A stretch of 64,000 nucleotides of DNA from Rhizobium sp. CCGE531 (lineage in GTDB: Bacteria > Pseudomonadota > Alphaproteobacteria > Rhizobiales > Rhizobiaceae): assembly GCF_003627795.1 (NCBI RefSeq), contig NZ_CP032684.1:1775001-1839000 (forward strand), written 5' to 3'. The notes beneath the pieces are model-generated. The model saw only the letters and a program-made list of their open reading frames with translations. It searched no databases and had not been told where the DNA came from. The position numbers and the translations under genes are program-made. Positions 38,709 to 58,436 of the stretch are shown one piece after another (position 1 is the stretch's first letter; each line of letters starts with the position of its first letter).

Positions 38709-41700
38709 TCAACTATCAGCGAACTGAGCGGTTAGATTCGATTCAGCCGCTGGCTTGAGTGAAATCTGTAGGTCGGCTAATTCTGTAACCACATCATACT
38801 CGAAGCCTGAAAACAAGTTGATCAATTCATCTTGGCGGGGCTGACCGAATGCCAATCGATAGGTCGCCAGTGATTTCTTCAAGCTGTCGTAGCGCTCGAC
38901 CTCTCTGCTGAAAGGGGGGATGAGTACAACGCGTTGAATTTTTTCTTCGCCGGGGTACAGCCAGAAAGGCACGATATCGCCAGCGTGGCCCTCGGAGATC
39001 TCTAGCTTCCGGGCGGCCTCGAACATGCCCTCCCACGGTGCGATATGACCATCCTCGCTCAGGGCGAAATCGCCGAACCTGGCAGCAATGTTGCGCCGGA
39101 CAGCATGGTTTTTGAACCGATGAACCCGACCTTCCCGCTGCTCGATGTCGACGGGATTACGCGGCAGGTTCCAGTGGACGATCCTGGCACAATAGGGGTG
39201 GAAATCCAGCCCCTCTTGGCCAATGGAAGTCGTCGCCAGAACAAACGGACGAAAAGGCGATTTGAACGCAGCCTGCACGAGCGTCGTGCGGCGAACGCCC
39301 TTCTCATCCTCTGCTTTTGTCGCAAATCGCATCGCAAAACGCGCACGCACCTCGAATGTCTTGTCGTGCAAGCGGGAGCGCCCAGCGGTCCAGTGATCAA
39401 GCGTTATCTGAGCCGGCCGCAAGGCAACGACTTCGACGAGCTTCGTAGCAATCAGGGCTGCTCGTTTGTCCGCTACCAGTTCGACGCCACGCTCAGCTTC
39501 AAGTACGAGTTGGAGATACTCATCCAAGACTGCCGATAAGTCGTGCCCTGCGGCATGCGCAATGATCTGGCGCCAATAATTCAGGGGCGAAGTTTCCTCC
39601 AACAATGCCCGGCTTTCTGCCTGATTATACAGTGTCCGGAAGCCGAGAGCGATCGAGACTGACGCTTCGAGAAGAGCAGGATGGTCTAGTGGTAGTTCCG
39701 GACATAGACGGCCAAGTGCTCGAAGAGCACAGGTTGCCGGTGATCCAAGGGCAAAGTCCGCGAGTTTGTGATAGATATCTCGGACATCGTGATCGTCCGA
39801 GTGATCTTCGGCTTCGAGCGCGTTCGTGAGCACCTCAATGGTGCGTGCCATAGCCCCGTGTTCCTCGTGACCATCGTGCTCAATAGCACCCACCCTGCTC
39901 CAGTCCACGCTCCTTCCCAGATTGTCTTCCAAATTGAGGGGGAGGAGTCGGTCGGATTTCCCGGATAGACGCGATAGTTGCTCCTCGTCGATGCGCTCGG
40001 TAAGCACTCCAACCGCCTGGCGGCGCAGCTCATCATAGCTTGTCGCACGTCCAAGCTGGCGTTCCATTGCCAAGGGGTCTACCCAAGCCGCCAGAGTAGG
40101 GGACGGGCATAGCATTGGCATCATCTCCTCGATGCCAATTGGGCGGCTGGTGCGGCTAACGAGATCGCCTGTCATGCCCATGCGACGGCTTGCTTCATGC
40201 GACAGAAGCGCAGCGATCGCGTCTGGAACCATGGACCAGTCTGAAAATATGAGCGACTTCGTTGCCGGGACCTGCTCTCCGTATGATGGGCGAGACGGTG
40301 GAAGCCACAACGCGCGATCAAGTCCATGCTCGAAGGCTGTGTCGGCCACCACGCGCATCCTCGCGTTTCTCAGCGGAACCTCTGCATAAGTCTCAACCTG
40401 CTCCTTGCTGATGAGGAACGGAGCAGCCGCCTTGATCGCGCTGCGCAGTTCGCTGGAGGGCTGCAGTTTCAGCGCCTGCAGTTTCTGACGAAGCTTGTAG
40501 TCGCGCATGAAATTGAGCAGGTATGGCGACGACTTCCAATACTCGACGATACCCGGCGCGCTGACGATGGCCGCCACCTGGCCAATAGCCTTCGCCTCCT
40601 TGAGATCCTCCGTCTCGATTGTCAGTTCTGGTTTGGTTTCCTTGACCAGAGCGTTGCGGTCGTCGGTGGAATCCACGCGCTCGGTCCGGGCGATGACCTC
40701 GCCCAGAATGTGCTGGACCCGGTCGCGCTGGACACGGGCGTGAACCCTCGTCTCGGGCATTGCCTGCAACGCACGGCGGAAGCCTTTAAGCTCCCGTTCG
40801 AGTTCTTTAATCCGCACCTCACCATCTTCCTCCCCGAACAGGAAGCGCATGGTACGCAAGAAATCACCGTAGTGATCGCCCTCTTCCGGATCGTCACTGT
40901 TCAATGTCAGCATGCGGTATGGTGTAGCTGATAGCAGCAACAGGCGCGCTTTCGAGCCGTCAGCGCCGGAGTAGGAAAAGAGAGCACGAGCGAGCTCCGC
41001 CGCGGCGGCCTTTTCGGGCGCCGACTGCTCATCGTGCTCGTGCAGCAGGTCGGCAAACCGCTGAAATTCGTCAAGGATTATCAAATCCGGACTCAAGGCA
41101 TCAACACAAATCCGAGCCAGGATACGGCGCAACTCTCCGATCATGACCGCCGGCCGCTGATCAGGAGGATAAATTGGACTCTTTTTGCTCCTAGCCAATT
41201 CCGAGGCGGCACGAATTCGCATTATGAAATCGTCTGCGACAGCCACGTTGAAAATCCTGGCGATTTCTTCAGATATTTTCTGACCACGCATCCAGTCGGT
41301 CCAGCCTGGCCAGTTTTCGGCATCGACACCGCCGCGGAAAACCCGCTGTATGCCCTTGTGTCGAATGCCGATCCTCTTCCTCAGCATCTCGTAAATGAGT
41401 GCGCGCTCCTTTGCGGTACCGAGCGATGACTTCAGATCAAGTGCGGTTCCCGGGGTGAGACTGATCAGATTTATGGGTCGGGAGGCAATTCCGCCGTCCT
41501 TCTCGATTTCCAGTGGCAGCAAGGTTAGGCGGGTGTTCAACGGTTTTGTCGCCGAACCGATGACGTTGAGCGACTTGATGTTCTGCTCGGCGATCGCCTG
41601 GTTTGAGCAAATGTAGACGACGTCGATACGATCAACCTTGCCGGTCAGCTCTTCAATCGCCTTCGCAATGACGCCTCGGGCCACCATGGTCTTGCCTAGA

Positions 41701-41831
41701 CCAACCTCATCGGCCACGAGAAACTGCCTCGTCGTCCGCGGGTCGGTGAAAAGACGTCGAAACACATAGTTGACCGTGGCCCGCTGAAAGGGCTTGAGCA
41801 GCGTCAGATGCTCGTCTGCTTGATAGGTCAT
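38709..41831 (-). CDS. Snf2/DEAD-like superfamily 2 helicase
   Basis: A 1040-residue SF2 helicase. Start at 41831 because it overlaps the upstream stop by ATGA; a longer reading exists. Motifs: Q-like LLKPFQRATVNYVF, motif I ADEVGLGKTMVARG near residue 40-50, motif II LIILDEFQRF near 270, motif III LLSATPYRML, and in the C-terminal lobe TTSIGQEGLDFH, HWNLPRNPVDIEQREGRVHRF (motifs V and VI, cited in parts). Over 300 residues between the lobes are unassigned. Last gene of a three-gene group with a PLD-like nuclease and DUF6361. Translocation on DNA (or RNA) is expected; a role in phage or plasmid defence is inference from partners. Confidence 0.85.
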   Translation of the reverse strand: MTYQADEHLTLLKPFQRATVNYVFRRLFTDPRTTRQFLVADEVGLGKTMVARGVIAKAIEELTGKVDRIDVVYICSNQAIAEQNIKSLNVIGSATKPLNTRLTLLPLEIEKDGGIASRPINLISLTPGTALDLKSSLGTAKERALIYEMLRKRIGIRHKGIQRVFRGGVDAENWPGWTDWMRGQKISEEIARIFNVAVADDFIMRIRAASELARSKKSPIYPPDQRPAVMIGELRRILARICVDALSPDLIILDEFQRFADLLHEHDEQSAPEKAAAAELARALFSYSGADGSKARLLLLSATPYRMLTLNSDDPEEGDHYGDFLRTMRFLFGEEDGEVRIKELERELKGFRRALQAMPETRVHARVQRDRVQHILGEVIARTERVDSTDDRNALVKETKPELTIETEDLKEAKAIGQVAAIVSAPGIVEYWKSSPYLLNFMRDYKLRQKLQALKLQPSSELRSAIKAAAPFLISKEQVETYAEVPLRNARMRVVADTAFEHGLDRALWLPPSRPSYGEQVPATKSLIFSDWSMVPDAIAALLSHEASRRMGMTGDLVSRTSRPIGIEEMMPMLCPSPTLAAWVDPLAMERQLGRATSYDELRRQAVGVLTERIDEEQLSRLSGKSDRLLPLNLEDNLGRSVDWSRVGAIEHDGHEEHGAMARTIEVLTNALEAEDHSDDHDVRDIYHKLADFALGSPATCALRALGRLCPELPLDHPALLEASVSIALGFRTLYNQAESRALLEETSPLNYWRQIIAHAAGHDLSAVLDEYLQLVLEAERGVELVADKRAALIATKLVEVVALRPAQITLDHWTAGRSRLHDKTFEVRARFAMRFATKAEDEKGVRRTTLVQAAFKSPFRPFVLATTSIGQEGLDFHPYCARIVHWNLPRNPVDIEQREGRVHRFKNHAVRRNIAARFGDFALSEDGHIAPWEGMFEAARKLEISEGHAGDIVPFWLYPGEEKIQRVVLIPPFSREVERYDSLKKSLATYRLAFGQPRQDELINLFSGFEYDVVTELADLQISLKPAAESNLTAQFADS

Positions 41832-43690
41832 TTTCGGGTGCCCTTGGTCGTCGCGAGCGGCGCAAAGCTGGCCCACAACTTTAGAAAATCTTCGGGGACG
41901 ATGCTCTTGCCCGTGTCGGGGTCTCTCAGGTGTTCAATAAGCTGATCGATCTCAGCAAGCTCGTCACCAGCGAGCGCCAGAGCCCGCACCATTGGCTCCA
42001 GCAGCGCGTTTCCACCTTGACCAAGGCGTCGAAGCCACTGACCCTCGCCTGCCTTATCGCTCTCCAGGAAACTGCCTTCACCCAAACTTCCGAGAAGCAT
42101 GCTCAGATAGCGGAAGAAGTTCTCGACATTGGCTATGTGCGCGCGCAGCACTGCAGCGTCCCGTCCGTCGGGCAGGCCAATGAGCCGGGCGCCCAGAGTG
42201 AATGCAATCGACACACCCGTTTCCTCGTCCCGGAGCCGCATCCCCAGCCAACGCGTGACATAGCTCAACGGAACAGAGCTGACAGCCATCCTCGCGGCTG
42301 TACCACAGAGCAGCGGCGCTACGTCGTAGCCCTGTTCATTGGCAACCGTGATTGGCCGAATGAAACATTTCACGCCCGCTGGAATTTCAATCGGCGCTGT
42401 GTTGCCGGCAACGGCCAGTTCAAGGCCAACCCCTTCAGCCAATTGTGTACAGTGGAGATCGAGCGGCAGGGCTGAGATCTTGGTGCGTAATTTCTCGAGG
42501 ACCTTTTCAGCAAGGGCAGTAGCGTCCTGCTCGACTGGCGCTGACGGCACGTAGGGCGTCAAAAGGCGCTGAAACCCGTCCGAGAATAGTGTCTCTGCAA
42601 TGGAACCCATTCGGCTTTTGGGACCATCAAGGGTCGCCATGACTTCCACGTTTTGCGTCCGACCGCCCTGGGCAGGCACCAGTGCAGCAGATGTTGCGTT
42701 GGCAGAGCCAAGGTGGATATGCAGACGGGAGCCACGTTCGACGATGTACACCTTGGCATGCAGACCTTCGAGATCGGTGGCCCCTGGGTCGTCACGATCT
42801 TCTTCCTCATATCGTGTCGCCCGGTCATCTAGCGTCTGTATCTCAAAATGCTTGCGAACGTCAGGCTTGATGCAGTCTAGCTCCTCAGCGCGAGCGACAA
42901 GCTGACAGGCGGAGGGTTGGTCGTAACCCTGGGAGAGGCGTGTAAGCGCGTTACCGCTGACGAAAGGCGACAGGATAGCAAGGCGATCACCCTTTTGCGG
43001 AGCCCATACGCTTGAATTCAGACCATTGACAGCAAAGCTAACCTTGGTCGCCCCCGCAGGGAGATCCTCCCAGGTGCAGCGCTCTAGGTCGCGCAATAGC
43101 GATGGAAGAAATTTTGGCGCCGCCGGACGAGTGGCCGAATTTGCCAGGCCCGGAAGGGCACGAAGAAGCTGCGCAATCGGTTCATTGTCATCATTGACAT
43201 GTTCTTGAACCTTGCCATCGAGGCAAAGAGCCAAATCCCAGCACCTGTCATTCGTCAGATTTCGGGAAAGAACCGCAAGCCGTATACGCGTAGGCTGCCC
43301 CTCGCGCTCAGGTTTGAAACGAATGCACCAAAGTTTGGGATGGAAAGCACCGCCGCCTGGAGCCGAAACCTCGATGATCGTCTTCTCGTACAGTGCCGTC
43401 AGCCGTGCTGCATTCGGGCGAGCCTCCTTAATGCGGCCCCGATCACAGTAAATAGCCATTTTGCCGGCCATTCGCTCTACGCTTTGCAGCAAAGCCAGCG
43501 GGCTTCGCATCATCTCGTCGCGGTTTTCGGCATCTCGAAAAACGATTGTGATTGGAATGGTGAGGGCAGTTTCGAAATCGAGAGAGTAGGTCGTCGCTAC
43601 GGCGTTGTCGAACTGGTATTGATCGGGCGCCCGCATGAGTGCCGTGTAGAGCTGACGATTTTCAGGGTGAAAGGCGGGTTCAGCCGGCAT
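41828..43690 (-). CDS. Phospholipase D-like nuclease family protein
   Basis: A 620-residue protein with two HKD-type half-sites: FHPKLWCIRF...LAVLSRNLTND around residue 120-155, and LHAKVYIVERG...HLGSANATSAAL around residue 310-345. Both have the His-x-Lys and the following Asn of the PLD superfamily, in which the pair builds one nuclease site. The start ATG at 43690 overlaps the DUF6361 stop by eleven bases; a longer reading to 43786 lies mostly inside DUF6361. Pairing of a PLD-like protein with an SF2 helicase is seen in several anti-phage systems (DISARM drmC, Mokosh), but no DUF1998/drmB is here. Confidence 0.82.
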   Translation of the reverse strand: MPAEPAFHPENRQLYTALMRAPDQYQFDNAVATTYSLDFETALTIPITIVFRDAENRDEMMRSPLALLQSVERMAGKMAIYCDRGRIKEARPNAARLTALYEKTIIEVSAPGGGAFHPKLWCIRFKPEREGQPTRIRLAVLSRNLTNDRCWDLALCLDGKVQEHVNDDNEPIAQLLRALPGLANSATRPAAPKFLPSLLRDLERCTWEDLPAGATKVSFAVNGLNSSVWAPQKGDRLAILSPFVSGNALTRLSQGYDQPSACQLVARAEELDCIKPDVRKHFEIQTLDDRATRYEEEDRDDPGATDLEGLHAKVYIVERGSRLHIHLGSANATSAALVPAQGGRTQNVEVMATLDGPKSRMGSIAETLFSDGFQRLLTPYVPSAPVEQDATALAEKVLEKLRTKISALPLDLHCTQLAEGVGLELAVAGNTAPIEIPAGVKCFIRPITVANEQGYDVAPLLCGTAARMAVSSVPLSYVTRWLGMRLRDEETGVSIAFTLGARLIGLPDGRDAAVLRAHIANVENFFRYLSMLLGSLGEGSFLESDKAGEGQWLRRLGQGGNALLEPMVRALALAGDELAEIDQLIEHLRDPDTGKSIVPEDFLKLWASFAPLATTKGTRK

Positions 43691-44852
43691 CGGCGAGTTC
43701 TCCAAGATAGTTTTTGGAAATTCCCCACCTGAAATCGAGACGCGCGTCGCCGGAGGCGCCCGACCACCTCTCCAGCGGTGCATCATGCAAAAGCCGCGCC
43801 TTCAATCGCTTGAGGCTTTGTTCTCGAAGCTTCAAGAGGTCGATGGCGGAACTATCGGTTTCCAGGTACCTTGCCCCCTCTCGGGCTATCGATACCCATG
43901 CTCGGATAAAGTCTCGGGACGGTTTCGTCAGAGTGTGGCTGGTCGTTCCAATCAGGCTAAAGAGATCGTCTAGATCCCAGCTGTTCAAGTCGAGGAATTC
44001 GAGGTTGGTCTTCCAATCGTCGAGACGCGAGCGGTAATGCTCTATCAGCGCCGGTGCATCACCGTGCTTCTTCGCGTGCGGTCGCTCTGCGGCACGCAGC
44101 GCTAGCAAGAGATTGTAGAGCAAGCTTGCGCCATACATCACGCCGGAAAATCTCTCCGCGTGGCGCAATAGCGCGCGATTGGGCTTTGAGATGGTGCTCT
44201 CGCTCACCTGCCATGGCCAATCCTGGCTGAAGGACTTGCCCGTCGCAGCCAGTTCATTCAGCAGGCTCGGCTTCGCGTTACTGGCGATGCGGTCGCGCAG
44301 GAAGTCCGCTTCCTTCGGCGTCAAAGCGAATGTTGCCTCCTCAAACAGATTTGCAGGCGCCTTTGGCAGGCTTGATGACCAAAGCTTAAGGTCGTGATCC
44401 TTGAAAATTTCAGGACCATAGGACAGGAAGGTTGCCTGCGAACCCATCATGGTGCGGATACCAAGACTGTTCAGACCCGCCCAGTACACACTTGAGGCAA
44501 GTCGCTTGAGGTCTCGGCCGGCATCACGGCCGATCACACCGACAGTCTCACCGCCGCGAAGCAACGCTTCGCTCAGCCGAAATTCAAGATCGCGCGCAAT
44601 ATTCGTCCGTTCTGCCTGCGTTGCCTTGCGGCTTTGCGCCTCGCAATAGGTCCACGGAATGAACAGCATATAGCGCAGCCGTGTCTGGATGGTGCTGGTC
44701 CCTGGAAAAAGAAGATCGGCAAGGCCATCGCGCACGGTTCCTAAACCCAACTCGTCGCGAGCTTCCGGTTGTTTGAAGAGATCGATGAGCGTTTGAGCGC
44801 GTCGACGTTCCTCCGGGTCGAAATCAATCCAAGCAAGGTAGGACATGTGCAT
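43680..44852 (-). CDS. DUF6361 family protein
   Basis: About 390 residues; the start is uncertain (ATG at 44852 or 44846, or a GTG at 44906). The opening MSYLAWIDFDPEERRRAQTLIDLFKQ and the segment TRLRYMLFIPWTYCEAQ are the family pattern. It is mainly alpha-helical by composition with no catalytic motif I can name. DUF6361 proteins are regularly next to PLD-like and helicase genes in mobile islands, and here the reading overlaps the PLD gene. Function unknown; possibly a structural or sensing subunit of the helicase-PLD complex. Confidence 0.75.
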   Translation of the reverse strand: MHMSYLAWIDFDPEERRRAQTLIDLFKQPEARDELGLGTVRDGLADLLFPGTSTIQTRLRYMLFIPWTYCEAQSRKATQAERTNIARDLEFRLSEALLRGGETVGVIGRDAGRDLKRLASSVYWAGLNSLGIRTMMGSQATFLSYGPEIFKDHDLKLWSSSLPKAPANLFEEATFALTPKEADFLRDRIASNAKPSLLNELAATGKSFSQDWPWQVSESTISKPNRALLRHAERFSGVMYGASLLYNLLLALRAAERPHAKKHGDAPALIEHYRSRLDDWKTNLEFLDLNSWDLDDLFSLIGTTSHTLTKPSRDFIRAWVSIAREGARYLETDSSAIDLLKLREQSLKRLKARLLHDAPLERWSGASGDARLDFRWGISKNYLGELADAG

Positions 44853-44957: not shown

Positions 44958-47900
44958 TCAAGATGGCGGCAGGGGCGCCTTTGGGGGATTAACGGCGATT
45001 ACGGTCGCGCTCGTCATCAGCACGATCAGGCCCAGCTCGGCACCTGTCATTTCGAGATAGGCATGAACCTGGTCCCGGTACTGGTCCAGTGTCTTTGCAT
45101 CTGGATCCACATCGCTCTTCCAATCGACCACCACGACAGGGCGACCTTCGTGGTTGACCGTAAGAGCATCCGCGATGCCTGCCGTTGCGACAATTTCATT
45201 GTCTTCTGCACGGAGGGCATAAACGGGAAACTCGGCAAGCAGACTTGACCGCAGGGGCGCGATTTCCGGCAGCGCCAGCGTCCGGCTAACGCAGCCGCCC
45301 AGTTCTTCCGGCACGAGTCCGGCGGCCGAATTGGCGACCGGAACCTTGCCGAGCGCGCGGATAAGTTCTTCGGCGCGCGTGGCGAGCGCCGCGGGCCCGT
45401 CGTCGGTTTCGCCGGTCAAGACTTCTTCCATCAGCTTATGCAGGATAAGCCCGCGCTCGCGACCACCCTGCGGGGAGGCGGGTGTTTCGAGCTCGGTCGG
45501 CGCACCTTGGTCTGATCCGCTCCAGATATCCGGTTCCTCTTCCTGCAGTATCGCCCCGGCCGCATTCTCGTCGCGGCTTGGCGCAAGCCATGTCAAGCGC
45601 ATTTGCCGATCGGCGATCGCGCCGGCCTCGGCGGCGAAGGCCTCGCGCGTCTGGTCGTTGCTCGGGCCGCCACTGACCACAACGGGATCCGGCGGCAGGT
45701 GCGACGCGTCCAGCGCGGCGAGCGCTGCGATCGACAAGTCGACGAGACTGATCCATGCCGATTTTGAAGGCGTCACGTCGAGTCGCGGAAGAACCAGTAA
45801 CTCTCTGGCACGCGTCGCGGCGACATACCAGAGACGTACGCGTTCACGGTCGAGCTCGTCCTTTTCTGCCTGCCGCGCGGTCTCATAGCCGGTCGGCGGG
45901 ACCCCGAGAATTGGGCAGTAGAACGTATCGTTCTGCCGGTCGATCACCGCGCTGTCCGGCGGCATCACACCGGTCATTGTGTTGATGGGAATGACGATCG
46001 GCCATTCGAGGCCCTTGGCCGCGTGCATGGTGAAGAGCGCGACGGCTTCTTCCTGAGCGTCTGGCCGGCCCTCGACGGCGCGGGCCTCGTCGGTCCAAGC
46101 CGCGGTCATCGCCTCGGAGAATGCCCGCAAGCCGCGGACCGGATAGTTCGTCGACAGATTGAGATAGAGATCGACATTGGCGAGCGCGCGCTCGGCCTGG
46201 CCGCGGTGTCGTTCGAGGAGGATAGGACGCACGCGCAATACATCTATGGCCTGCGAAAGAAGCGCGTGTGGTGTTGTGCCGTTGCTACGCCGATGAAGCG
46301 CCTGCAGCTTTTGAAGCACGTCGCGAGCTACAAGATGACCGATATCCGCCGGATCGACGCCAAGATCGAGACGAGGAATCCGGTTGGGTTCGTCCTTCGA
46401 GCGCGGCAAGGTCCAGCTGATGTCCAGCAGCTCTTCTTCACTCAGCCCGACAAGTGGGCCGCGCAATAGCGCACCCAGTGCCAGGGTGTCACGGCGATCT
46501 GCCAGCACGCGGGTCAGCGCAATGAGATCCTGAATCTCCTGCCGGCGGAAAAGGCCCTTGCCAGCCTGTGTCGCCACCGGAATGCCCCGCCGCTCCAGCG
46601 CCTCTTCATAGCGCCACAGGTCCGCGCCGGTCGGGGCAAGGAGAGCGATATCGCCAGGCTGACACAGCCGGTCCTCACTACTTTTTCGGTCGAAAATGTG
46701 GTGGCTGCCGATTAAGCGGGCGCACAGTTCGGCCACGGCATCGGCTTCCGCGTCACGCTGCTGTTCGGCGCTGGCCTTGCCGTCTGCGTCCGCGACTGCA
46801 ATGTCGAGGGCGGCGACGCAAAGGCCTTCGCCGCGATCGTTGTGGAAAGGGTCGAGCGCCGTGAAGCCGGGTTGTCCATCCGCTGACAGGATCGCCTCGA
46901 AGCGCTCGTTGACGAATGTGAGGATCGAGGCGCAGGAGCGGAAATTGGTCGAGATTGACACCAGGCCGTCTGCATCCCGTGCCGCGAAGGCCGCGCGCGC
47001 CTGGACATAGGCCCCGACGTCTGCGCCGCGAAAGCGATAAATTGCTTGCTTCGGGTCGCCAACAACGAAGAGCGCGCCGGGACGAATCCGAAAGCTGGTC
47101 CAATCCTGAGCCTCGTCTGCAGCATCGCCACACAGGCGCCAGAAGATTTCCGCCTGCAGGGGGTCTGTATCCTGAAACTCATCCACGAGAACGCGGGCGT
47201 AGCGCTGTCCAAGCGCCTGCCGTACCGCCTCGTGGTCTCGGAGCAGATCACGGGCAGCGTATATGAGGTCATCAAAATCGAGCTGGGCGCTGGCGCGCTT
47301 GCGCTCTCGGTAGCGTTCCAGGATTGGTCTTGCCTCATCGATAAGCGTCGCGAGCACCTGGCCGGACGCGGCCTGTAGAAGCGCGGTCCAGGCGGCGCAG
47401 CAGGCATCAAAAAGGCTCTCTGCAGCATCATTCAGCCGGTCGCCGTCGGCCTTGGAAAGCCCTGCCTGCTTCGCCGCGGCCACCCATTTGCCCTTCTTGC
47501 GATAAGATGAAAAGCCGCCAGCCTTGGTGCACAGATCGGGATGGGGGCGTGAGACTAACAGTCCGACGAGACCTGCAGGCGTTGATGCATCAGCTGAATT
47601 TGGCAAGCGCGTCGCCATTTCGGAAAAGCGAGCCGCGTAGACCTCGGTCTCCGGCTCGGTGACGCCGGCTGCCCGCATGAAGGCAGAGAGGCTATCGGCC
47701 GTTTGGCGAAATGCCTGCAAATGCTGGGCAAGTGCTGTTACCGCTGGCGCGACGAGGCTCCTGCGTCGGCGCAAAGCTTCGGCGATCTTATGCATGAGCG
47801 CCACGGTCTCGCCAGGACTGTGCAACACCATTTCGGCGAGGATCCCACTCTGATTGCCCGACAAGCGTTCTCGCAGCCAGTCATCGACAATTTCGAGAAA

Positions 47901-51010: not shown

Positions 51011-51176
51011 GATGTTTCCTTTCCTCATCAACCCGTTTCCCGGTCGGTTTCGCTGTGCCGTCGGACCGCGCGAACGCCCGCTTTTCAGGCCGCACGGTCC
51101 TTCTTACGAGGTACAAGCAACGGTTTGGAAGTAGACTTTGGCGCGATATGCTTGCGCCGCAATGTAACTCACAGGT

Positions 51177-51620
51177 TTATTGCTTAGGTGCTGATATCCA
51201 CGTCCAAATCCGTTGCCAGATACCGCGCTGGGGCGTTGCCGGAGCGGTATGGGCAGGAGGTTCGACCTTTGCCGGCTGGCCGTAGAAACGCTCCTTAGCG
51301 GCGCGATCGCGACGACGCTCAGCTTCGACCTGTTCCTCGCTCCACGGGCCTGCTTCGATAATCTTGCTTCGATCGATCACATAATGTGACCGGCACTTCA
51401 GCGTCCAATTACCGATCGACGGACGAAGGGAGATGGTTTCGCCGTCGAATGTCATCTTCCAGTCCGTCGGTGTGAAGGGGACGATCACTTCCTCGCCGCA
51501 GCCGCAGCAACAACTATGGGCTGACGTCGCATAGTCCATCGACACGTAGAGGACACCAGCCTGCAGACGCTCGGGAATATGTTCGACGAAGCGGTGCTCA
51601 AGTCGTTGGTACCGGATCAT
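51177..51620 (-). CDS. DUF6527 family Cys-rich protein
   Basis: A 147-residue protein; the ATG at 51620 overlaps the E1 stop (ATGA). Conserved-looking metal-site residues: HSCCCGCGEEVIVPF (Cys37-41) and, 35 residues later, WTLKCRSHYVI (Cys76, His79), an arrangement suited to a zinc-binding treble-clef or ribbon. TPTDWKMTFDGETISLRPSIG is the family core. It is the constant third member of multi-ubiquitin/E1 loci of this type, so an E3-like or substrate-handling role is a fair hypothesis, not an observation. The Pro/Ala tail is disordered. Confidence 0.75.
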   Translation of the reverse strand: MIRYQRLEHRFVEHIPERLQAGVLYVSMDYATSAHSCCCGCGEEVIVPFTPTDWKMTFDGETISLRPSIGNWTLKCRSHYVIDRSKIIEAGPWSEEQVEAERRRDRAAKERFYGQPAKVEPPAHTAPATPQRGIWQRIWTWISAPKQ

Positions 51621-52789
51621 GCGAGGTCTCCGTTGATCAGCATGTTGCCGTCGGTCGTGTAGGTGCAGTGGTGTTCCTGCTCCAGATCGCGATAGAAGCC
51701 GCGGATCTTCTTCCACTTCACCACCGCGAGAACGGCATTGAGTGCGTTGAGGTCGGCCACCTGGATGTTGGAGGCGTAGATGTCCTTGGCGCCGCCGCCC
51801 ACAAAGGAAATGCGCTGCGGCACGTGATCCCGCTTTTCGGGCGTGCTGGCGGTCACCCGCAGGATGCCACCCAGCGAGCCTTCATCAAGCTCAAGACCCA
51901 TCCCGACATCGATGAAACCGGCGCCGATTGCCTGGAGTTTCTCCACGATCGACTGCTTGGCCTCACCCGCATCAAGGGAAAGGAACGCGAAGGTCACGCC
52001 GTCGAGAAGGTGGAGGTTGTCAGCGTTCAGAGCGACATCGTTCGCTACGATGTTGCGGTGCATGCGACTGTAAATGCGCTTGAGATATTCGACCTTCTTG
52101 GGCGCGTCCCGGAGCTCGTCCAGGCTGGGAGCACCTGGCGCGCGGAACGCATTGTGGGTGAGAAATTCATCGCTGTCGAAGATCCGGATTTCGCAAACCG
52201 GTGTTTTCGCGACAAGGTCGAGAATGTAGCCGCCCGTGCCGCCGAGCCCGATAATGGCGATGCGCTCGCCCACGAGCCGTCCTGTCAACGCGCCGATACC
52301 AACGCGGTCGGAGGCGGTCTCGACGTAGTTGAACACGCTCTCTTCCTCCTGTTCGGGCTCGCGAAAGGTGCGTGCGGTCGAACCGGGCTTCAGCACTGCC
52401 GCCGGCCCCGCGATGATGTTCGCGTAGCTTGTCATCTTATGGTGATAGTCCGCATAGCCGCCTTCCGGCTTGCTTGAGAAGCTGTGCGTTGCCTTCAAAC
52501 CATGGCCAAGGTTGAAGGCGCCGCTCACGTGCGAAATCCCTTCAATTCGAACGCCATCGGCATGGCAAGGGAAATCACCGTCCCAGTGAACGACATGCGT
52601 GTCCGGCGTACGTGTCTGATCTCCGGCCAATGTAAGGCTGGAGATTAAGGTGCCGATGCGCAGCTGTCGGCGCTCGTCGACATAAGGGATCTCGCGCATT
52701 ACGAGATAGCCGCCCTGCTGCTGGACGAAGTAGCCTTCGTCCAGCAGGCGCTTGAGGTCTGGATTACGATTGAACAGTGCGCGTGACAT
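51617..52789 (-). CDS. E1-like ThiF adenylyltransferase with N-terminal DUF6791/E2-like region
   Basis: A 390-residue protein. Residues 165-390 are a ThiF/E1 Rossmann domain: ERIAIIGLGGTGGYILDL (nucleotide loop at 180-186), the acidic pair in IRIFDSDEF (205-207), N213 and R216 of HNAFRAPG, then the usual crossover. Residues 1-160 match the domain placed before such E1s (DUF6791) and contain VVHWDGDFPCHADGV with Cys75 and SFSSKPEGGYADYHHK, which may be an E2-like site. Start at 52789 overlaps the multi-ubiquitin gene by 26 bases. It should activate the C-terminus of the neighbouring ubiquitin-like protein with ATP. Confidence 0.83.
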   Translation of the reverse strand: MSRALFNRNPDLKRLLDEGYFVQQQGGYLVMREIPYVDERRQLRIGTLISSLTLAGDQTRTPDTHVVHWDGDFPCHADGVRIEGISHVSGAFNLGHGLKATHSFSSKPEGGYADYHHKMTSYANIIAGPAAVLKPGSTARTFREPEQEEESVFNYVETASDRVGIGALTGRLVGERIAIIGLGGTGGYILDLVAKTPVCEIRIFDSDEFLTHNAFRAPGAPSLDELRDAPKKVEYLKRIYSRMHRNIVANDVALNADNLHLLDGVTFAFLSLDAGEAKQSIVEKLQAIGAGFIDVGMGLELDEGSLGGILRVTASTPEKRDHVPQRISFVGGGAKDIYASNIQVADLNALNAVLAVVKWKKIRGFYRDLEQEHHCTYTTDGNMLINGDLA

Positions 52790-53519
52790 TAAATACCGTA
52801 CCCTTCTTCTTGACATCGACAGAGCCGCCGGCTCCGAGTTCTCCGGCATGGGGGGCCGACGCCGCGTGCCGATAAGTCATCGAGAAGACGACATTCGGCT
52901 CGTGCTGACCCGGAAAGGCGAGCTGGACGACCTGCTCGAACGCCACCGTCCGAGCGTCCACCGTGCGGCGGCGCGAATTGACGATGATCTCAAAGGTCAC
53001 GGGCGGCTTGGGCGCGGTGATGAAACGCTCGATGCCAGCGACCGTCAGGTCGTCCAGCTCGTTCTGTTCGATCAAGCGATCTTCGCCGCCCGGAACTTCG
53101 AGGAATACCGCCTCGTTGTCTCCCGGCTTGGCCAGTCCATAAAGGACCGCACCGCTGATGACGGGCTTGCCCCAGCGCATTTCGTCGTCGTTGAGGGTCA
53201 GCTTGAATTCGCGATCCGACTGGAAAGCAATGAAGCGCTCAGCCCCGCGCTCGCGCAGGTCAAAGGGTTCATTCAAGCGTACATCCTCGAATTCGCCCGA
53301 CGGCAAGATCGCAAAGAGGCTGTAGCCGTGCCGAGCATCGAGAGACGCGGCCTCCAGCACCTGCCGGCCGAGCGGCACGGGATCGCTCACATGACGCTGT
53401 TGAAAATTGAGGTCGCCCTCAGCAAGGAGAAACCGATATCCCCGCGCCGGTCGAAGCGCCCGGCCTTCGCGCAGGGCGTCTCCGACATCGTCATATTCAA
53501 GAAGTTCTTCCGTAGTCAT
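52764..53519 (-). CDS. Multi-ubiquitin domain protein
   Basis: A 251-residue protein built of three beta-grasp-like repeats of about 70 residues, each opening with an alternating hydrophobic strand and closing with a short ERF/VFNV strand: about 27-97 (YRFLLAEGDLNF ... ERFIAF), 100-170 (REFKLTLNDDEMRWGKPVISG ... ERFITA) and 172-251 (TFEIIVNSRRRTVDA ... TVFNVTRTVQS). This fits the bacterial multi-ubiquitin family. The C-terminus is not a bare diglycine, so processing or a different attachment mode would be needed. It begins the E1/DUF6527 subunit group and overlaps the E1 gene. Confidence 0.8.
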   Translation of the reverse strand: MTTEELLEYDDVGDALREGRALRPARGYRFLLAEGDLNFQQRHVSDPVPLGRQVLEAASLDARHGYSLFAILPSGEFEDVRLNEPFDLRERGAERFIAFQSDREFKLTLNDDEMRWGKPVISGAVLYGLAKPGDNEAVFLEVPGGEDRLIEQNELDDLTVAGIERFITAPKPPVTFEIIVNSRRRTVDARTVAFEQVVQLAFPGQHEPNVVFSMTYRHAASAPHAGELGAGGSVDVKKKGTVFNVTRTVQS

Positions 53520-53600: not shown

Positions 53601-56600
53601 TCAGGCAAACTTTTTTTTCAGCGGCCCTTGCGGGGTCGAACCACAGATGAAGAAAGCGGGACAGTTCGGGCATGTGAATGAGGAAACCGTGGCAGGAAAC
53701 CGCCCCCCGCGAATTTCGCCTAGAAACTTTGCAAGCTTGTCTCTACGCCCCGACAATTCACGATCGGACAGGGATAGGGGATGCGCTTCAATGTCCGAAA
53801 GGTGGACCAACTCTGCGACGGCGCCCGGGAAGGCCTGCTTGACGGCGAGGATTAGGGCCGCGGCCCCGACATCCTTGCCCTCGGTGGATCGCATGTGACC
53901 TGTTCCAATGCGGCGAACCGCGCGGACTCCATCGGGTCGCACCAGCACCTCGTCCGGCTCGACGAGGATTTCCTCACCTCCAACTATGAGACTGACTGCG
54001 GTGCGCACCTCGAAGACCGCTCCCGCGCGGCTGGACAAAAAGAAGCGCAGCATCGCCATGGCGAGATCGAGGAATTCCGCACGATAACCATGATCGGAAA
54101 GCCCTTGGCTGACGAAGGCTGCTTCCGCTCGATCTTGCAGCTCCCGCTCCGAAAGAGACAAGCCGGACGCGACCACCGCCCCAACCACCGAGCGGACTGC
54201 CTCATGCAGCTGCATGAAGGCAGTCGTGGTTCGACGTCCACCGACCTGAAGGACATGCGTGTAGAAAAAGCGACGTGGACATGACTCATAAAGAGCGATT
54301 TGCGGTCCGCTAAAGCGAAGCCGCCCGTCGACGATCATTTCAACGCTCTGCGCGTCTGGGGCCGGGGGAAGGGGGCGAGCTGGCATGATCGTGCGGCGCA
54401 TCAACGTGGTCCCGAGGCGGTCGAGGAACGGCGAGAGTGGCCGATTGTGCCCATTGCTTTTCTCTGTCGGTGCATAGAGGAACAGGCGGTTGCGAGCGCG
54501 TGACAACGCAACATAGAAGAGGCATTCCTGCTCCTCAGCTTGGCCGGCCCGGAATGCATCCAGGGCGCTGCCGTCCGCGCCAGTGATCATGCCCGTCGGC
54601 GCCGGGCACGGTGGAGCCTGCGGCGTCCGTGGGATTGTATCGCTGTTAAGTCCAAGGATATGCACAGCTTCGAATTCCAGGCCCTTGGCGCCGTGGATCG
54701 TCATCAGTCGCACGCCGTCGAGATGCTGTGCTGCTGCCGGCAGCTGTCGCAGGTCGCGGTCGTCGCCCAGGCGCACCAGTCTGCGCACGCGGTCGAGCAG
54801 GCGCGTGACAGGCAGCCCGCGTCCCGAGGGTTGTACGCGCACGAAATTCAGGAACTGCCAGATCGCAATACCGCGTGTGCGATCGCCGAGGTCCGACGAT
54901 GCTCCGAGACGTGCCGTAATCTGCGTGCGATCGAGAAGCAGCGTCGCGAGTATTGTCCACGGCGAGGCGGCGTCGCCGAATCCATCCAGAGCAACAGCCA
55001 AGTTCCCCAGCGCCCGACGGCCTGCCTCGCTCAATTCTGGGATGGAGGCGAGACTCTGCAGCCAACTTGCCGGAGCGGGATCTGTTGCTCTCAAATAGGC
55101 GAACACAGCCGCGACGTCCGCGAAAGACATAGCGAAATCCGGCCAGCATGCGATGCGAACAAGGCCCATGGCGCGCCGGTCGACGAGTATCGAGAGGAGT
55201 GCAAGCAGGTCCTTGACCTCCCCTCGCTCGAACAGGCTGCCAAGGAAGAGAACCGGCACACCGAGCCGCTCAAGATCTTGCCCTATCCTGGACAGCTTTT
55301 CATTGCCCGTGCACAAGACCACCTGATCGCGATAGGCATGCCCCTCGCGTCGCAGTTCCTCGATCACCTCTGCCAGAGCGACCTGCTGTTCTTCGGCTCG
55401 CCGAACCGTGTGCAGTTCCGGCGGATGACCATTGACGCCTCGCTCCGCATCAAGGCCGCTATCTGCATCACCAGCTCGCATCTTCATGGCGAAATTGGAA
55501 AAGCTGGTCGTGATCTCTGGTACCGAGCGATAGTTGCGCTTCAATCGACCGCGTTTGCCCCCGGCGAAGTCTTCCTTCCCGAAGCGTGTCATGTTGAACG
55601 ATGACGCTCCCCGAAACCGATAGATCGACTGCTTGGCGTCGCCGACCACCCAGAGATTATCGCCATCGGGGCGTATCGCGCTCAGCAATCTCACGCTGCT
55701 GCGATTGACGTCCTGATATTCGTCGACAAGGACGTGATCGTACTGCGCCTGGAGTGTCGCGCGGATAGGCGCATCCTTCTCGAGCAGTTGAACCGGTAGC
55801 GCGACAAGGTCGCCAAAGTCGACACAGTTCGAATTGCGCTTGAGCTGCTCATAGGCCGCGTAGACGCGCGCGACTTCGACGGCGCGCTCTGCCGCTTCGC
55901 GTGCCTCCGGATCACTCGCCTTTGACAGCATGGCGTCGGCGAGCACTGCATAGGTGTCGGCATCGACCACCTCATCCTTGGCTCTCGACACGGCAACCAG
56001 CATATCGGCGATGATCTGGGTGGGATCATAAAGATTGCGATAGTGAGAAAGCCTCAGGCGCGGAAACTCCTCCTCAAGGAGCTCGACCGCTTCGGTTCGA
56101 TCCATCATCCGCGGGTCTTTCGGCAGGCCGAGTTCCGCATAAAACCGACGAATGATATCGAGGCCGAAGGCGTGAAAGGTACCGATCCACATTGCGGCGG
56201 CTGCCTCGGGCCGCTTGCGTGCGATCCTTTCGGCCATTTCCCCCGCCGCCTTGTTCGAGAAGGTCAGGAGCAAGATACGCCTCGGATCAACGCCGTCTTC
56301 CAGAAGGCCTTCGACGCGCGCAACCAAGGTTTGGGTCTTGCCCGTGCCGGGGCCCGCTTCGAGCAGGTAAGCTTCGCCGCGATGTGCCGCTGCCGCCGCT
56401 TGCAGAGGATTCAACGACCGTGCCGCATGCGCTGCCTCGGTCGTTGACGGCACCGGCGGCAGGAGCAAGGCATCGAATAGCTGTTGCGCGACGACCTCGA
56501 ATGGTGCGCCGAGCTTCGTGGAAATCTCGGCCGCCGACAGGCCCTCGTCGATATGAAGTGCCCGCGCGACGTTGCGCGGGAGCAGCAGCTCGCGAGCGAA

Positions 56601-57002
56601 CAAATCCATCTGAACTTCGCGGCGCTGTTTTCGCCCATAGTCGACAACCCGATCAATGCCGACCGGTGACGGCTCGGCGGGGCGAGCTGGATCGATTGCC
56701 GGCACAGGCGCATCATCTGGATCGTCGCCAAGTTCGACATGTCCAATCTCGTGCGCAACAAGGAAAGCTCTTTCGAACAAAGAACCAACGTTCTCATGAA
56801 GGATCAGGTCGTCGGCGGCTATGAGGGTCGCGCGACCGCCGTTGAGCACAGCCGCACCTGCCGCAGTAGGCTCAATGTCGATCCCCCGTCGCTTTGCCTC
56901 GGCGACAACCAAGTCATATGGTGACCAGGGATCGACTCCGGATTCGACCAGATGAGCGTGAAGCTCGGCGGCGACTTGCCTGGCAAGCTCCACGCTTTCC
57001 AT
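53601..57002 (-). CDS. Fusion: IrrE-type metallopeptidase, UvrD helicase and degenerate RecB-like nuclease
   Basis: A 1133-residue fusion. Residues 1-180: ImmA/IrrE zinc peptidase with LVAHEIGHVELG (His84, Glu85, His88) and MDLFARELLLP. Residues 200-880: SF1 helicase with LLEAGPGTGKTQTLVARV (Walker A ~216-223), TFSNKAAGEMAERI, VLVDEYQDVNRSS, VVGDAKQSIYRFRGA, LMTIHGAKGLEFEAVHI and LFYVALSRARNRLFLY. C-terminal 200 residues: RecB-like fold with iron-sulphur-type cysteines (YESCPRRFFY and FTCPNCPAFFICG), but where D-Y-K is expected the text is VRRIGTGHM, so the nuclease site looks lost. A protease joined to a helicase suggests regulated activation, as ImmA/IrrE peptidases cleave repressors. Confidence 0.83.
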   Translation of the reverse strand: MESVELARQVAAELHAHLVESGVDPWSPYDLVVAEAKRRGIDIEPTAAGAAVLNGGRATLIAADDLILHENVGSLFERAFLVAHEIGHVELGDDPDDAPVPAIDPARPAEPSPVGIDRVVDYGRKQRREVQMDLFARELLLPRNVARALHIDEGLSAAEISTKLGAPFEVVAQQLFDALLLPPVPSTTEAAHAARSLNPLQAAAAAHRGEAYLLEAGPGTGKTQTLVARVEGLLEDGVDPRRILLLTFSNKAAGEMAERIARKRPEAAAAMWIGTFHAFGLDIIRRFYAELGLPKDPRMMDRTEAVELLEEEFPRLRLSHYRNLYDPTQIIADMLVAVSRAKDEVVDADTYAVLADAMLSKASDPEAREAAERAVEVARVYAAYEQLKRNSNCVDFGDLVALPVQLLEKDAPIRATLQAQYDHVLVDEYQDVNRSSVRLLSAIRPDGDNLWVVGDAKQSIYRFRGASSFNMTRFGKEDFAGGKRGRLKRNYRSVPEITTSFSNFAMKMRAGDADSGLDAERGVNGHPPELHTVRRAEEQQVALAEVIEELRREGHAYRDQVVLCTGNEKLSRIGQDLERLGVPVLFLGSLFERGEVKDLLALLSILVDRRAMGLVRIACWPDFAMSFADVAAVFAYLRATDPAPASWLQSLASIPELSEAGRRALGNLAVALDGFGDAASPWTILATLLLDRTQITARLGASSDLGDRTRGIAIWQFLNFVRVQPSGRGLPVTRLLDRVRRLVRLGDDRDLRQLPAAAQHLDGVRLMTIHGAKGLEFEAVHILGLNSDTIPRTPQAPPCPAPTGMITGADGSALDAFRAGQAEEQECLFYVALSRARNRLFLYAPTEKSNGHNRPLSPFLDRLGTTLMRRTIMPARPLPPAPDAQSVEMIVDGRLRFSGPQIALYESCPRRFFYTHVLQVGGRRTTTAFMQLHEAVRSVVGAVVASGLSLSERELQDRAEAAFVSQGLSDHGYRAEFLDLAMAMLRFFLSSRAGAVFEVRTAVSLIVGGEEILVEPDEVLVRPDGVRAVRRIGTGHMRSTEGKDVGAAALILAVKQAFPGAVAELVHLSDIEAHPLSLSDRELSGRRDKLAKFLGEIRGGRFPATVSSFTCPNCPAFFICGSTPQGPLKKKFA

Positions 57003-57003
57003 A

Positions 57004-57588
57004 TCACTCGGCCTGTATCAGAAGCTCGGCCCGCTTCTCATCGGAGACGCCAGCGTCGATCAGAACTCTCTCGAAGGATACTTGCTCGCCCGCGCTCGGC
57101 TTGCCATCCGCCTTATAGCTGCGAGCTGCGGACAACGGTGCCGTTCCCCAGGACATCTGCAGTTGGGAAAGTGAGCAGCGCATCGCCTCTGCCAGCCTCC
57201 CGAGGAACCTATTCGGAATACTCAGCAGTGACACCCGCCGTTCACGCAACGCGGTGATGACCTGGCGCGGGACATCCAGGTGGTGAGCAACAGCGCGCCA
57301 ATCGTCGGCTGTCAGAGCCGCAAAAGGATCTGGTCCGGCCGCTGGCGCTGGTAAAGCCTTCGCGTGTTGCGACCAGGCGGCGTCGATCAGCTCCTTATCC
57401 GCGGCGGAGAGCGGTGCGTCATCTTCCGAAGTTTCACGGCTCAACTCGCGCGACAAGTCAACGAGTTCGGCGGCGTGTTCCGGATAAAGCCGCAGGTAGC
57501 GCTCGAGGGTCGAGCGATCTGGCTCGCTTTCGACTGCGAATGCATCAAGCACGGCCTCACGAGAGGGGCGTTCGCCAGCCGGGCTCAT
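57004..57588 (-). CDS. Hypothetical protein coupled to sigma-like gene
   Basis: A 194-residue protein with YLRLYPEHAAELVDLSREL near residue 30-48 and a possible helix-turn-helix around WRAVAHHLDVPRQVITALRE (residues ~97-116), followed by RFLGRLAEAMRCSLSQL. This looks like a divergent regulator of the XRE kind but I do not recognise a named family. It overlaps the upstream gene (ATGA) and ends one base before the IrrE/UvrD gene, so it is a fixed member of the operon and could be the target of the IrrE-type peptidase. Confidence 0.65.
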   Translation of the reverse strand: MSPAGERPSREAVLDAFAVESEPDRSTLERYLRLYPEHAAELVDLSRELSRETSEDDAPLSAADKELIDAAWSQHAKALPAPAAGPDPFAALTADDWRAVAHHLDVPRQVITALRERRVSLLSIPNRFLGRLAEAMRCSLSQLQMSWGTAPLSAARSYKADGKPSAGEQVSFERVLIDAGVSDEKRAELLIQAE

Positions 57589-58436
57589 TGCTGTTCCCCG
57601 TCAGTCAGAGCCAACCGCAATGCTGCAATCGCTTTGTCGCGATAAGTCCGGATCGTCTTTTCGGAGCGGCCCAATGCTTTGGAGATGGTCATGACGTCTG
57701 GCTCCTTGGAATCTATGGGAAAGCCCTCTTTCAGCATGTGTATGATCCTGATTTGTTCTGGTGGTAGAGCTTCAATCGCCGCATCCAGACGCGACCGGTA
57801 AAACGGCTCGTCGATTTCCGGTGCGGCAAAAGGATCATAGACGCCGGCGGCTCTTTCCACCTCCGCGGTCGGTTCACCGCTCTCCTCGTCGTATTCGATA
57901 GATTGGGATCTGTTCTCGTCTCGCCAAGCCTGTTCCTGAGCATCGCGTCGCAAGCTAGCAACAGCGCCATCGAACCGGACTTCGAAATAGTCGAGTTGGT
58001 CGACATATGATGCGCGGTCCGCAGAAAGCATTTCTACGAAGCGGCTGAAGACTTTGTCACGGACCACGCTGCGCGTCAGCGATTCAGTCTTTCCGTCGGA
58101 GCTTTCCGATTTAGGCACGCTGCGAAGCACCCGCTCCATGAGAATACGATAGAGCCCCTCGAACCAGGTCTCGTTATTGTCGTGACGGCTTGCGCGAATG
58201 AAATGCACAAGGCACTCGCTCGGAACGTAGCCTGGGTCGGAGCGCTTCGTGATTGCGGCTCGGCTGATGAGCTCGCTGCGCGGGAGGACCGCCAGTTCGC
58301 CGATGAAGGCCTCTATCTTCGGGTCCCTTTTGTAGAGTTCGCCGTTGAGACTTCGTTTGCGTAGTGGGACCACGACTGCCTCCGCAGCCCCGCATGCCTC
58401 GTGTACCATATCGGGAGCTTTCTCCAGCTGGTTCAT
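57585..58436 (-). CDS. Sigma-70 region 4-like DNA-binding protein
   Basis: A 283-residue protein. The C-terminal 65 residues read DAAIEALPPEQIRIIHMLKEG then ISKALGRSEKTIRTYRDKAIAALR, a region-4/LuxR-type helix-turn-helix as in ECF sigma factors. The N-terminal two thirds (helical, charged) have no clear region 2, so it may be a sigma-like activator rather than a full sigma factor. ATG at 58436 preferred over a GTG at 58451. First of a tight group with the 194-residue protein and the IrrE/UvrD fusion; a likely regulator of the island. Confidence 0.65.
   Translation of the reverse strand: MNQLEKAPDMVHEACGAAEAVVVPLRKRSLNGELYKRDPKIEAFIGELAVLPRSELISRAAITKRSDPGYVPSECLVHFIRASRHDNNETWFEGLYRILMERVLRSVPKSESSDGKTESLTRSVVRDKVFSRFVEMLSADRASYVDQLDYFEVRFDGAVASLRRDAQEQAWRDENRSQSIEYDEESGEPTAEVERAAGVYDPFAAPEIDEPFYRSRLDAAIEALPPEQIRIIHMLKEGFPIDSKEPDVMTISKALGRSEKTIRTYRDKAIAALRLALTDGEQQ

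What the first reader, a model, noticed from the sequence alone, without database searches (positions are those of the whole stretch)
38709..58436. A 20-kb co-directional run joins ubiquitin-like conjugation, three helicases and several nucleases
Seen: eleven minus-strand genes from 58436 to 38709, several linked by ATGA, TAATG or direct overlaps, gaps of at most ~170 bases. They encode a sigma-like protein, a small unknown, IrrE/UvrD fusion, multi-ubiquitin, E1/ThiF, DUF6527, AddB-like, AddA-like, DUF6361, PLD-like and Snf2-like proteins. Established: multi-ubiquitin/E1 loci, PLD-helicase pairs and UvrD/RecB nucleases each occur in anti-phage or mobile-element settings. Inference: the run may work as one composite system in which protein modification regulates or tags the nuclease-helicase parts. 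I know of no named system with exactly this content.
Basis: partly seen in the sequence, partly recalled or inferred. Interest (0 to 1): 0.8.

Follow-up and report, generated by a model that had tools for sequence, protein, structure and literature searches.

The report
Mobile three-module DNA defence cassette
A mobile stretch of bacterial DNA strings together a ubiquitin-like protein-tagging operon, a DNA-end-chewing enzyme pair and a candidate anti-virus trio; each also occurs without the others, but tagging operons and the chewing pair meet in several different arrangements, which hints that they may work together.

Summary
The run is real: eleven adjacent minus-strand genes, 58436-38709, beside Trb conjugation genes. 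It is three separately mobile modules. (A) A six-gene ubiquitin-like block: sigma-like, small protein, IrrE-UvrD, three-domain polyUb, E1 with DUF6791, DUF6527; its core fits Iyer type 6e. (B) An AddB/AddA-like pair, additional to the host's own AddAB. (C) ZacABC, a PADLOC candidate system. The order recurs in 12 loci of at least six genera (seven of the 12 checked at three marker genes only), and dN/dS is 0.05-0.22 for all genes. Elsewhere the modules assort: 38 of 49 Ub loci lack B downstream; B also adjoins Shango, BREX/WYL or Gabija; C occurs alone. B-C usually lies beside a divergent WYL gene, not found near the run. Ub operons meet B in at least four arrangements; the E1 tree needs 7 gains or losses of B. 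Against this, only 2 of 20 non-own AddB loci in genome samples carry a Ub operon. Corrections: the IrrE-UvrD nuclease domain has lost a catalytic acidic residue (42 of 42), and the polyUb ends in a conserved Ser, not Gly. Best reading: a damage-responsive Ub-like controller coupled to DNA-end processing and a PLD-helicase effector. Architecture shown; mechanism inferred.

The parts
57585..58436 (-). sigma/response-regulator-like HTH protein, module A gene 1
   Evidence: weak HTH_36; relatives annotated sigma-70 or response regulator
57004..57588 (-). small 194-aa protein of unknown fold, module A gene 2 (proposed repressor or anti-sigma, inferred)
   Evidence: no Pfam hit; aligned
53601..57002 (-). 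IrrE/M78 metallopeptidase - UvrD helicase - degenerate PDDEXK domain with four Cys, module A gene 3
   Evidence: Pfam; invariant HE.GH, MDLFARE, GTGKT, DEYQD and four Cys in 42 sequences; acidic residue of D-x-K absent in 42 of 42
52764..53519 (-). three-domain polyubiquitin-like protein ending ...FNVTRTVQS, module A gene 4
   Evidence: Multi_ubiq E 3.5e-58; C-terminus conserved; PDB relatives 9cd2, 8u38, 9d5b, 9d59
51617..52789 (-). E1-like: DUF6791 domain fused to a ThiF-like adenylation domain, module A gene 5
   Evidence: Pfam (ThiF below its cut-off); conservation; best solved-structure sequence match MccB, E 0.005
51177..51620 (-). DUF6527, predicted metal-binding (CCCGCG ... CRSHY), module A gene 6
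   Evidence: Pfam; conservation
48356..51010 (-). AddB-like protein, module B (nuclease motif kept, no conserved Cys)
   Evidence: PDDEXK_1 E 4e-16; G.IDR.D ... DYK.G in at least 97% of 47 sequences
44958..48371 (-). AddA-like helicase-nuclease, module B (ORF start; true start may be slightly inside)
   Evidence: UvrD + PDDEXK_1; addA_alphas 278 bits, below the 861-bit cut-off; motifs in at least 97% of 43 sequences
43680..44852 (-). ZacA (DUF6361), module C
41828..43690 (-). ZacB, PLD-like protein with HPK, HAK and GSANAT motifs, module C (start inferred from the relative)
   Evidence: PADLOC ZacB 541 bits; motifs kept in 15 aligned sequences
38709..41831 (-). ZacC, SF2-type helicase, module C (start inferred from the relative)
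   Evidence: PADLOC ZacC 1030 bits; GLGKT, DEFQ, SATPY, EQREGR kept in 13 aligned sequences

Best explanation
The run is a composite, mobile-element-borne DNA-defence cassette made of three modules that also occur apart. SHOWN: module A (six-gene Ub-like block), module B (AddAB-like pair) and module C (ZacABC) assort separately; B-C is a common unit, in five of six sampled non-own loci beside a divergent WYL gene; in the Rhizobiaceae-type composite, module A lies upstream of AddB, where that WYL gene lies elsewhere; and Ub operons meet AddAB-like pairs in at least four arrangements that differ in order or AddAB lineage. INFERRED: module A is a damage- or DNA-end-responsive controller. IrrE-UvrD engages abnormal DNA with its helicase and Cys-cluster pseudo-nuclease, its M78 peptidase cleaves the small second protein, and the sigma-like protein then drives the operon. 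The E1 adenylates the unusual Ser terminus of polyUb and, perhaps through the near-invariant Cys75 and DUF6527, attaches it to a partner such as the helicases or AddAB. AddAB-like then processes phage or plasmid DNA ends, replacing a host AddAB that invaders inhibit or marking host ends as self, while ZacABC destroys the unlicensed DNA.
For: All six module A genes present (at least 70% covered) in 47 of 49 loci with at least 6 kb upstream, across alpha-, beta- and gammaproteobacteria. Arrangements: Ub6>AddAB>Zac (window), Ub6>AddAB of a 42%-identity lineage (L021), AddAB>Zac>Ub (L107), AddAB>Ub (L106), Shango>AddAB ... Ub (L064). E1 tree: AddAB label needs 7 gains or losses, 6 forced by starred branches. 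AddB tree: Ub-linked AddBs fall in several clades, beside Shango-, BREX/WYL- or WYL-Zac-linked ones. AddB-Zac: 5 of 6 non-own strong-ZacB genomes also have AddB, against 8 of 384 genomes, P 5e-9; adjacency seen in two (G175, G271), contigs separate in three. Nucleases and the PLD keep their motifs; M78 and UvrD motifs are invariant. The host has a canonical AddAB elsewhere. dN/dS 0.05-0.22. Precedents: RecBCD protects self DNA from Gabija and is antagonised by phage (PMC12407980, passages); WYL repressor of a defence island (PMC9122601, abstract).
Against: No experiment. Only 2 of 20 non-own AddB loci with assessable context in the genome samples carry a Ub operon, and genome-level co-occurrence of E1 and AddB has only P 0.005. 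The 7 changes on the E1 tree are gains or losses, so the number of gains is not fixed; against shuffles (mean 14.6, 0 of 500 as low) the label is clustered by descent. AbiE-type genes recur beside the Ub block at least as often (18 loci, 9 changes; 15 loci, 6 changes), so recurrence does not prove cooperation. A gap of 118-198 bases separates DUF6527 from AddB in the 11 loci measured; one transcript is not shown. Window versus L055 has dS 0.06-0.10 for AddB/ZacA/ZacB but 0.21-0.45 for module A, so the halves recombine apart. Protease target, adenylation of Ser and any conjugate are guesses.
Confidence: 0.42

Rival explanations
1. Chance pile-up: an ICE cargo hot spot holding three independent defence systems (type 6e Ub-like, AddAB-like, ZacABC) that do not cooperate.
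For: Each module occurs without the others or with other partners. A caspase-helicase gene (11 of 49 loci) or an integrase occupies the same downstream place in other loci. AbiE genes also recur upstream. Only 2 of 20 non-own AddB loci carry a Ub operon.
Against: A gene pair found in 9 of 385 genomes of the class meets Ub operons in several orders and lineages; order kept in 12 loci with low dN/dS. B-C is a common unit.
Confidence: 0.38
2. AddAB-like is chiefly an element-maintenance or anti-anti-recombination enzyme (repair and transfer of the ICE or plasmid), with the Ub block regulating conjugation stress rather than phage defence.
For: In the plasmid collection, 40 of 64 records with AddB are predicted conjugative (chromosomes were not in that search); the window run abuts trb genes.
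Against: Close same-strand association with ZacABC and Shango, and divergent WYL/BREX, in several loci.
Confidence: 0.15
3. Module A is a non-conjugating signalling system: the E1 makes an acyl-adenylate or modified C-terminus (MccB-like), and polyUb acts as an oligomeric scaffold or toxin.
For: 58 of 59 polyUb rows end in the same Ser motif; the other, L058, is a truncated frame. No Cys of the adenylation domain is invariant in 48 E1 sequences. Best solved-structure sequence match is MccB, E 0.005.
Against: Cys75 in DUF6791 is kept in 47 of 48 sequences, so a thioester is quite possible; the MccB match is weak and limited to residues 190-279.
Confidence: 0.2

Closest known systems
Iyer et al. 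2006 operon type 6e (polyUbl / E1 with 'domain X' / metal-binding Y), PMC1779556
   Same: Two or three tandem Ub domains, E1 with a non-JAB N-terminal domain in a subset, metal-binding protein (passages)
   Different: Its main text has 0 hits for helicase and sigma factor and 0 for UvrD; here sigma-like, small and IrrE-UvrD genes are constant partners, and AddAB-Zac is attached in the window
ZacABC (PADLOC-DB candidate)
   Same: All three proteins in order, 392-1030 bits
   Different: Here preceded by AddAB and Ub blocks; a search of the held papers for ZacA/ZacB/ZacC gave one unrelated paper
AddAB / RecBCD
   Same: SF1 helicase-nuclease plus partner nuclease, adjacent genes
   Different: Far below the AddA equivalog cut-off, no AddB family match at this locus, no conserved Cys in AddB-like, extra to host AddAB
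Shango and BREX-1/WYL islands with AddAB
   Same: The same AddAB-like family lies after SngABC, or divergent from WYL-BREX
   Different: The upstream partner is a Ub-like block in the window
Gabija (GajAB)
   Same: UvrD-type helicases resemble GajB models; GajAB lies directly beside AddAB in L082
   Different: A GajA query found nothing in the window; none among the PADLOC hits shown (two lists capped at 25)
Bil / Bub / CBASS type II conjugation
   Same: Bacterial E1 and Ub-like proteins; polyUb matches BilA structure 8u38 by sequence
   Different: No JAB gene found in the window, no Pfam E2 match; C-terminus is Ser, not Gly. The main features of Bil and Bub are recalled or from passages

Membership tests
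Iyer type 6e polyUbl operon | tandem Ub-like domains | tested here: met
   three Multi_ubiq stretches, E 3.5e-58
Iyer type 6e polyUbl operon | E1 with JAB or domain X at the N-terminus | tested here: met
   DUF6791 + ThiF-like, no JAB match; that DUF6791 is domain X is my inference
Iyer type 6e polyUbl operon | metal-binding protein Y | tested here: met
   DUF6527 with conserved CCCGCG and CRSHY; identity with Y inferred
Iyer type 6e polyUbl operon | inactive E2/RWD-like domain | tested here: inconclusive
   no Pfam E2 match; structure prediction never ran, machine busy (the last try)
Bil/Bub conjugation pathway | JAB deconjugase gene | tested here: not met
   no JAB match by Pfam among the eleven genes or by tblastn of one JAB in the window
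Bil/Bub conjugation pathway | E2 protein | tested here: inconclusive
   no Pfam E2 match; folds of DUF6791 and the small protein unknown
Bil/Bub conjugation pathway | C-terminal Gly on the Ub-like protein | tested here: not met
   58 of 59 rows end in the Ser motif; L058 truncated
ZacABC | ZacA, ZacB, ZacC adjacent and in order | tested here: met
ZacABC | phage protection | not testable with these tools
   bench assay needed
AddAB | AddA above the equivalog cut-off | tested here: not met
   277.7 bits against 860.75
AddAB | AddB family match | tested here: not met
   TIGR02786 matches only the host copy at C1:30737-33868
AddAB | two nuclease domains with catalytic motifs | tested here: met
   DYK.G and DWKSD kept in at least 97% of 47 and 43 sequences
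AddAB | AddB Fe-S cysteines (recalled feature) | tested here: not met
   no Cys conserved in 97% of 47 AddB-like sequences
Shango | SngA, SngB, SngC | tested here: not met
   no Sng match in the window by tblastn at E 1e-3
Gabija | GajA plus GajB | tested here: not met
   tblastn finds GajB-like helicase similarity only

The most novel reading that the evidence does not exclude
A bacterial Ub-like pathway with a Ser-ended polyUb, whose E1 has its only near-invariant Cys in the DUF6791 domain, directly controls or tags a DNA-end-processing AddAB-like complex: protein modification coupled to DNA-end sensing as a defence switch, assembled more than once in evolution.
Probability: 0.25. Interest if true: 0.85.

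Novelty: new variant of a known kind. Interest (0 to 1): 0.6.

Why it matters
It points to an AddAB-like helicase-nuclease pair as a shared neighbour of several defence systems (Shango, BREX/WYL islands, Gabija, Zac, Ub-like operons), and to Ub-like operons as one of its recurrent partners. If the coupling is real, bacterial ubiquitin-like modification acts on DNA-end processing. The natural set of module combinations makes this testable by building the modules singly and together in laboratory strains. The conserved Ser terminus of polyUb is a separate chemical question.

Tried and rejected
Rejected: 'eleven genes as one obligate system', because modules assort elsewhere. Not adopted as leading, but close: 'pure chance pile-up' (0.38). 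Not usable: the promoter and terminator scan; counts are at shuffle level (3 against mean 4.0; 15 against 15.9). Rejected as real neighbours: clusters 6 and 7, antisense of polyUb and E1. Seen by eye only: an inverted repeat in the DUF6527-AddB gap. Literature: DUF6361, DUF6527 and DUF6791 in 0 papers; ZacA/B/C in one unrelated paper; of 25 listed of 44 papers holding two of Shango, AddAB and anti-phage, none holds both Shango and AddAB; (15 of 146 listed) showed no use of AddAB-like or RecBCD-like. Two papers that would bear on the Ub chemistry (PMC12885553, PMC12145246) are not held. Structure prediction never ran.
Full report
Observation. The eleven minus-strand genes are present and close-packed. 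Pfam and PADLOC give their identities: sigma-like (weak), small unknown, IrrE-UvrD-PDDEXK, polyUb with three domains, E1 (DUF6791 + ThiF-like), DUF6527, AddB-like, AddA-like, ZacA (DUF6361), ZacB (PLD-like) and ZacC (helicase). They abut a plus-strand set of Trb conjugation genes. An Eco57I/type IIG-like methylase lies upstream on the other strand.

Conserved order. E1, AddB and ZacB lie in the same order and spacing in eight plasmid records (Rhizobium sullae, R. etli, R. phaseoli, Agrobacterium tumefaciens F2, A. fabrum, two Shinella, Mesorhizobium L-2-11). For R. phaseoli (L062) all eleven genes are annotated in order. Three genome contigs (L006, L007, L055) carry them too, ZacC cut by the locus edge. 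With the window that is 12 loci, seven of them checked at the three marker genes only. Nei-Gojobori dN/dS of the window against L006, L007, L055 and L062 is 0.05-0.22 (ZacC against L062 only). dS is of one order against L062 (0.23-0.53) and L007 (0.58-1.26). Against L055 it is 0.06-0.10 for AddB, ZacA and ZacB, 0.24 for AddA and 0.21-0.45 for module A, so the halves can be exchanged.

Module A. Of 56 genome loci found by the E1, 49 have at least 6 kb upstream, and 47 of these show all six genes at 70% coverage or more; in at least three of the 47 (L020, L057, L058) some genes are in pieces. The two others (L024, L025) lack sigma-like and small, L025 most of IrrE-UvrD too. The loci span alpha-, beta- and gammaproteobacteria; a Bacteroidetes contig has polyUb, E1 and DUF6527 (L060). 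The polyUb-E1-DUF6527 core fits Iyer 2006 type 6e (passages), whose main text has no hit for helicase or sigma factor. Seen here: 58 of 59 polyUb rows end in the motif [FI]NV[TS].T..S, L058 being a truncated frame. That paper says some newly found families have neither Gly nor another highly conserved residue at the C-terminus; whether it meant this family I cannot tell. In 48 E1 sequences no Cys is invariant; Cys75 in DUF6791 is kept in 47, Cys375 in 38, Cys199 in 4. IrrE-UvrD keeps M78 and UvrD motifs and four Cys (42 sequences); the PDDEXK motif II Asp is kept in 42 of 42, the acidic residue of D-x-K in none, the Lys in 2.

What follows module A. Of 49 loci with at least 3.5 kb downstream, 11 have the AddB-like gene (L031, a shorter one, makes a twelfth), 3 of these have Zac, and 11 have a caspase-helicase gene. 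A neighbour-cluster control on the E1 tree counted AddB in 16 loci with 6 changes and AddA in 16 with 7, caspase-helicase in 13 with 3, integrase in 14 with 4, ZacA and ZacB in 6 with 2, but AbiE-like clusters in 18 with 9 and in 15 with 6. The AbiE names come from position against annotated L062. AddAB is a recurrent accessory, not the only one.

Modules B and C elsewhere. In 385 genomes of the class, own included, 9 have AddB at E 1e-20, one of them only a fragment; 7 have the E1 domain; 11 have ZacB at E 1e-10, 7 of them below 1e-100. Without the own genome, 5 of 6 strong-ZacB genomes have AddB (P 5e-9) and 2 of 6 E1 genomes have AddB (P 0.005), these two within 15 kb. Of the five, ZacB and AddB are adjacent in G175 and G271 and on separate contigs in G060, G065 and G288. 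In 397 genomes of the order, own included, 13 have AddB at E 1e-40. Context could be judged for 20 non-own loci of both samples (three of them on contigs of only 11-16 kb); two were dropped (G288:C170, a 3.9 kb contig, and the G366 fragment). Of the 20: a divergent WYL-type gene close to AddB in 12 (two more weak matches), ZacABC directly downstream in 6, another DEAD helicase in 5, Shango in 1, a Ub operon in 2. Of the 6 with Zac, 5 have the WYL gene. No WYL match was found in the fetched flanks of the two Ub-joined loci; in the window the only one is a weak 55-residue match at 28929-29084 (E 2e-4) inside the T2SSE-like gene, 10 kb beyond the run. Among hand-picked plasmid loci AddAB also adjoins Shango, BREX-1, GajAB, an R-M-like set, an NTase-E1-JAB set (L070) and a JAB-type Ub operon (L081), or none of these; PADLOC confirms SngABC and GajAB. 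These were chosen for diversity and give no frequencies.

Joining of Ub operons and AddAB. The AddB tree (59 rows, 47 different; L021 and L031 left out for coverage) puts Ub-linked AddBs in several places: the window clade, L026, the L023/24/25/29 group beside BREX/WYL-linked rows, L027/L038 beside a WYL-Zac row, L107 beside a WYL-Zac row, and L106, L081, L070, L064 (several of the deep rows have long branches and some forks are weak). The E1 tree (68 rows, 17 labelled AddAB-linked) needs 7 changes, 6 forced by starred branches; these are gains or losses, and against shuffles (mean 14.6) the label is clustered. What a single join with losses cannot explain is the difference in arrangement: window type Ub6>AddAB; L021 with an AddAB of 42% identity; L106 AddAB>Ub; L107 AddB-AddA-ZacA-ZacB-ZacC-polyUb-E1-DUF6527 on one strand with an E1 of 37% identity; L064 Shango>AddAB with a Ub operon about 2 kb after AddA, a toxin-antitoxin pair between.

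Enzymes. Motifs of AddB-like (47 sequences) and AddA-like (43) are kept in at least 97%, those of ZacB (15) and ZacC (13) in all. The host carries a canonical AddAB at C1:27190-33868.

Mechanism, inferred. A composite cassette in which module A takes the place that a WYL gene holds elsewhere, AddAB-like handles DNA ends, and Zac is the effector. Precedents: RecBCD shields self DNA from Gabija, and phages that block it are targeted (PMC12407980, a preprint, passages); the WYL protein BrxR represses a defence island (PMC9122601, abstract); DNA-damage-driven controllers of Bub and other operons exist, though phage protection by Bub is said there to be undemonstrated (PMC13373217, passages). None shows the present coupling.

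Limits. No structure prediction ran. One transcript is not shown; the promoter and terminator scan was at chance level. Two recent papers on bacterial Ub-like proteins could not be read, so the novelty of the Ser terminus is unproven. The 'chance pile-up' rival stays close behind the best explanation.

Noticed in passing
window 59402-63469 (+): A 1355-aa Eco57I/type IIG-like methylase (DrmMI-like, 268 bits) upstream of the run; orthologues, cut by the locus edge, sit at the same place in L006 and L007.
   Followed up: partly
window 58568-59101 (-): A 177-aa protein without Pfam or PADLOC hit just upstream of the sigma-like gene, kept in L006 and L007; some other relatives have AbiE-type genes there.
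   Followed up: partly
L008-L012, L033, L040, L042, L056, L057: The Ub block is followed by a 1035-aa caspase-like-helicase gene (my reading of the sequence, not searched in a family library) and then a tyrosine-type integrase in most.
   Followed up: partly
G000:C4:477485-477676 and 447417-447620: Two further Multi_ubiq matches elsewhere in the own genome.
   Followed up: no
window 51020-51170: A short inverted repeat in the DUF6527-AddB gap looks conserved with changes on both sides among L006, L007, L055, L062; seen by eye.
   Followed up: no
L142, L144, L148, L150: A second, more distant ZacABC lineage (about 25-38% identity, partial matches) lies next to AddAB + DEAD helicase; in G618 (L144/L145) BREX-1 genes lie on the other side.
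   Followed up: no
L075, L140, L144: A short Ala/Ser-rich open frame seems to end just before AddB in several WYL-type loci (seen by eye).
   Followed up: no
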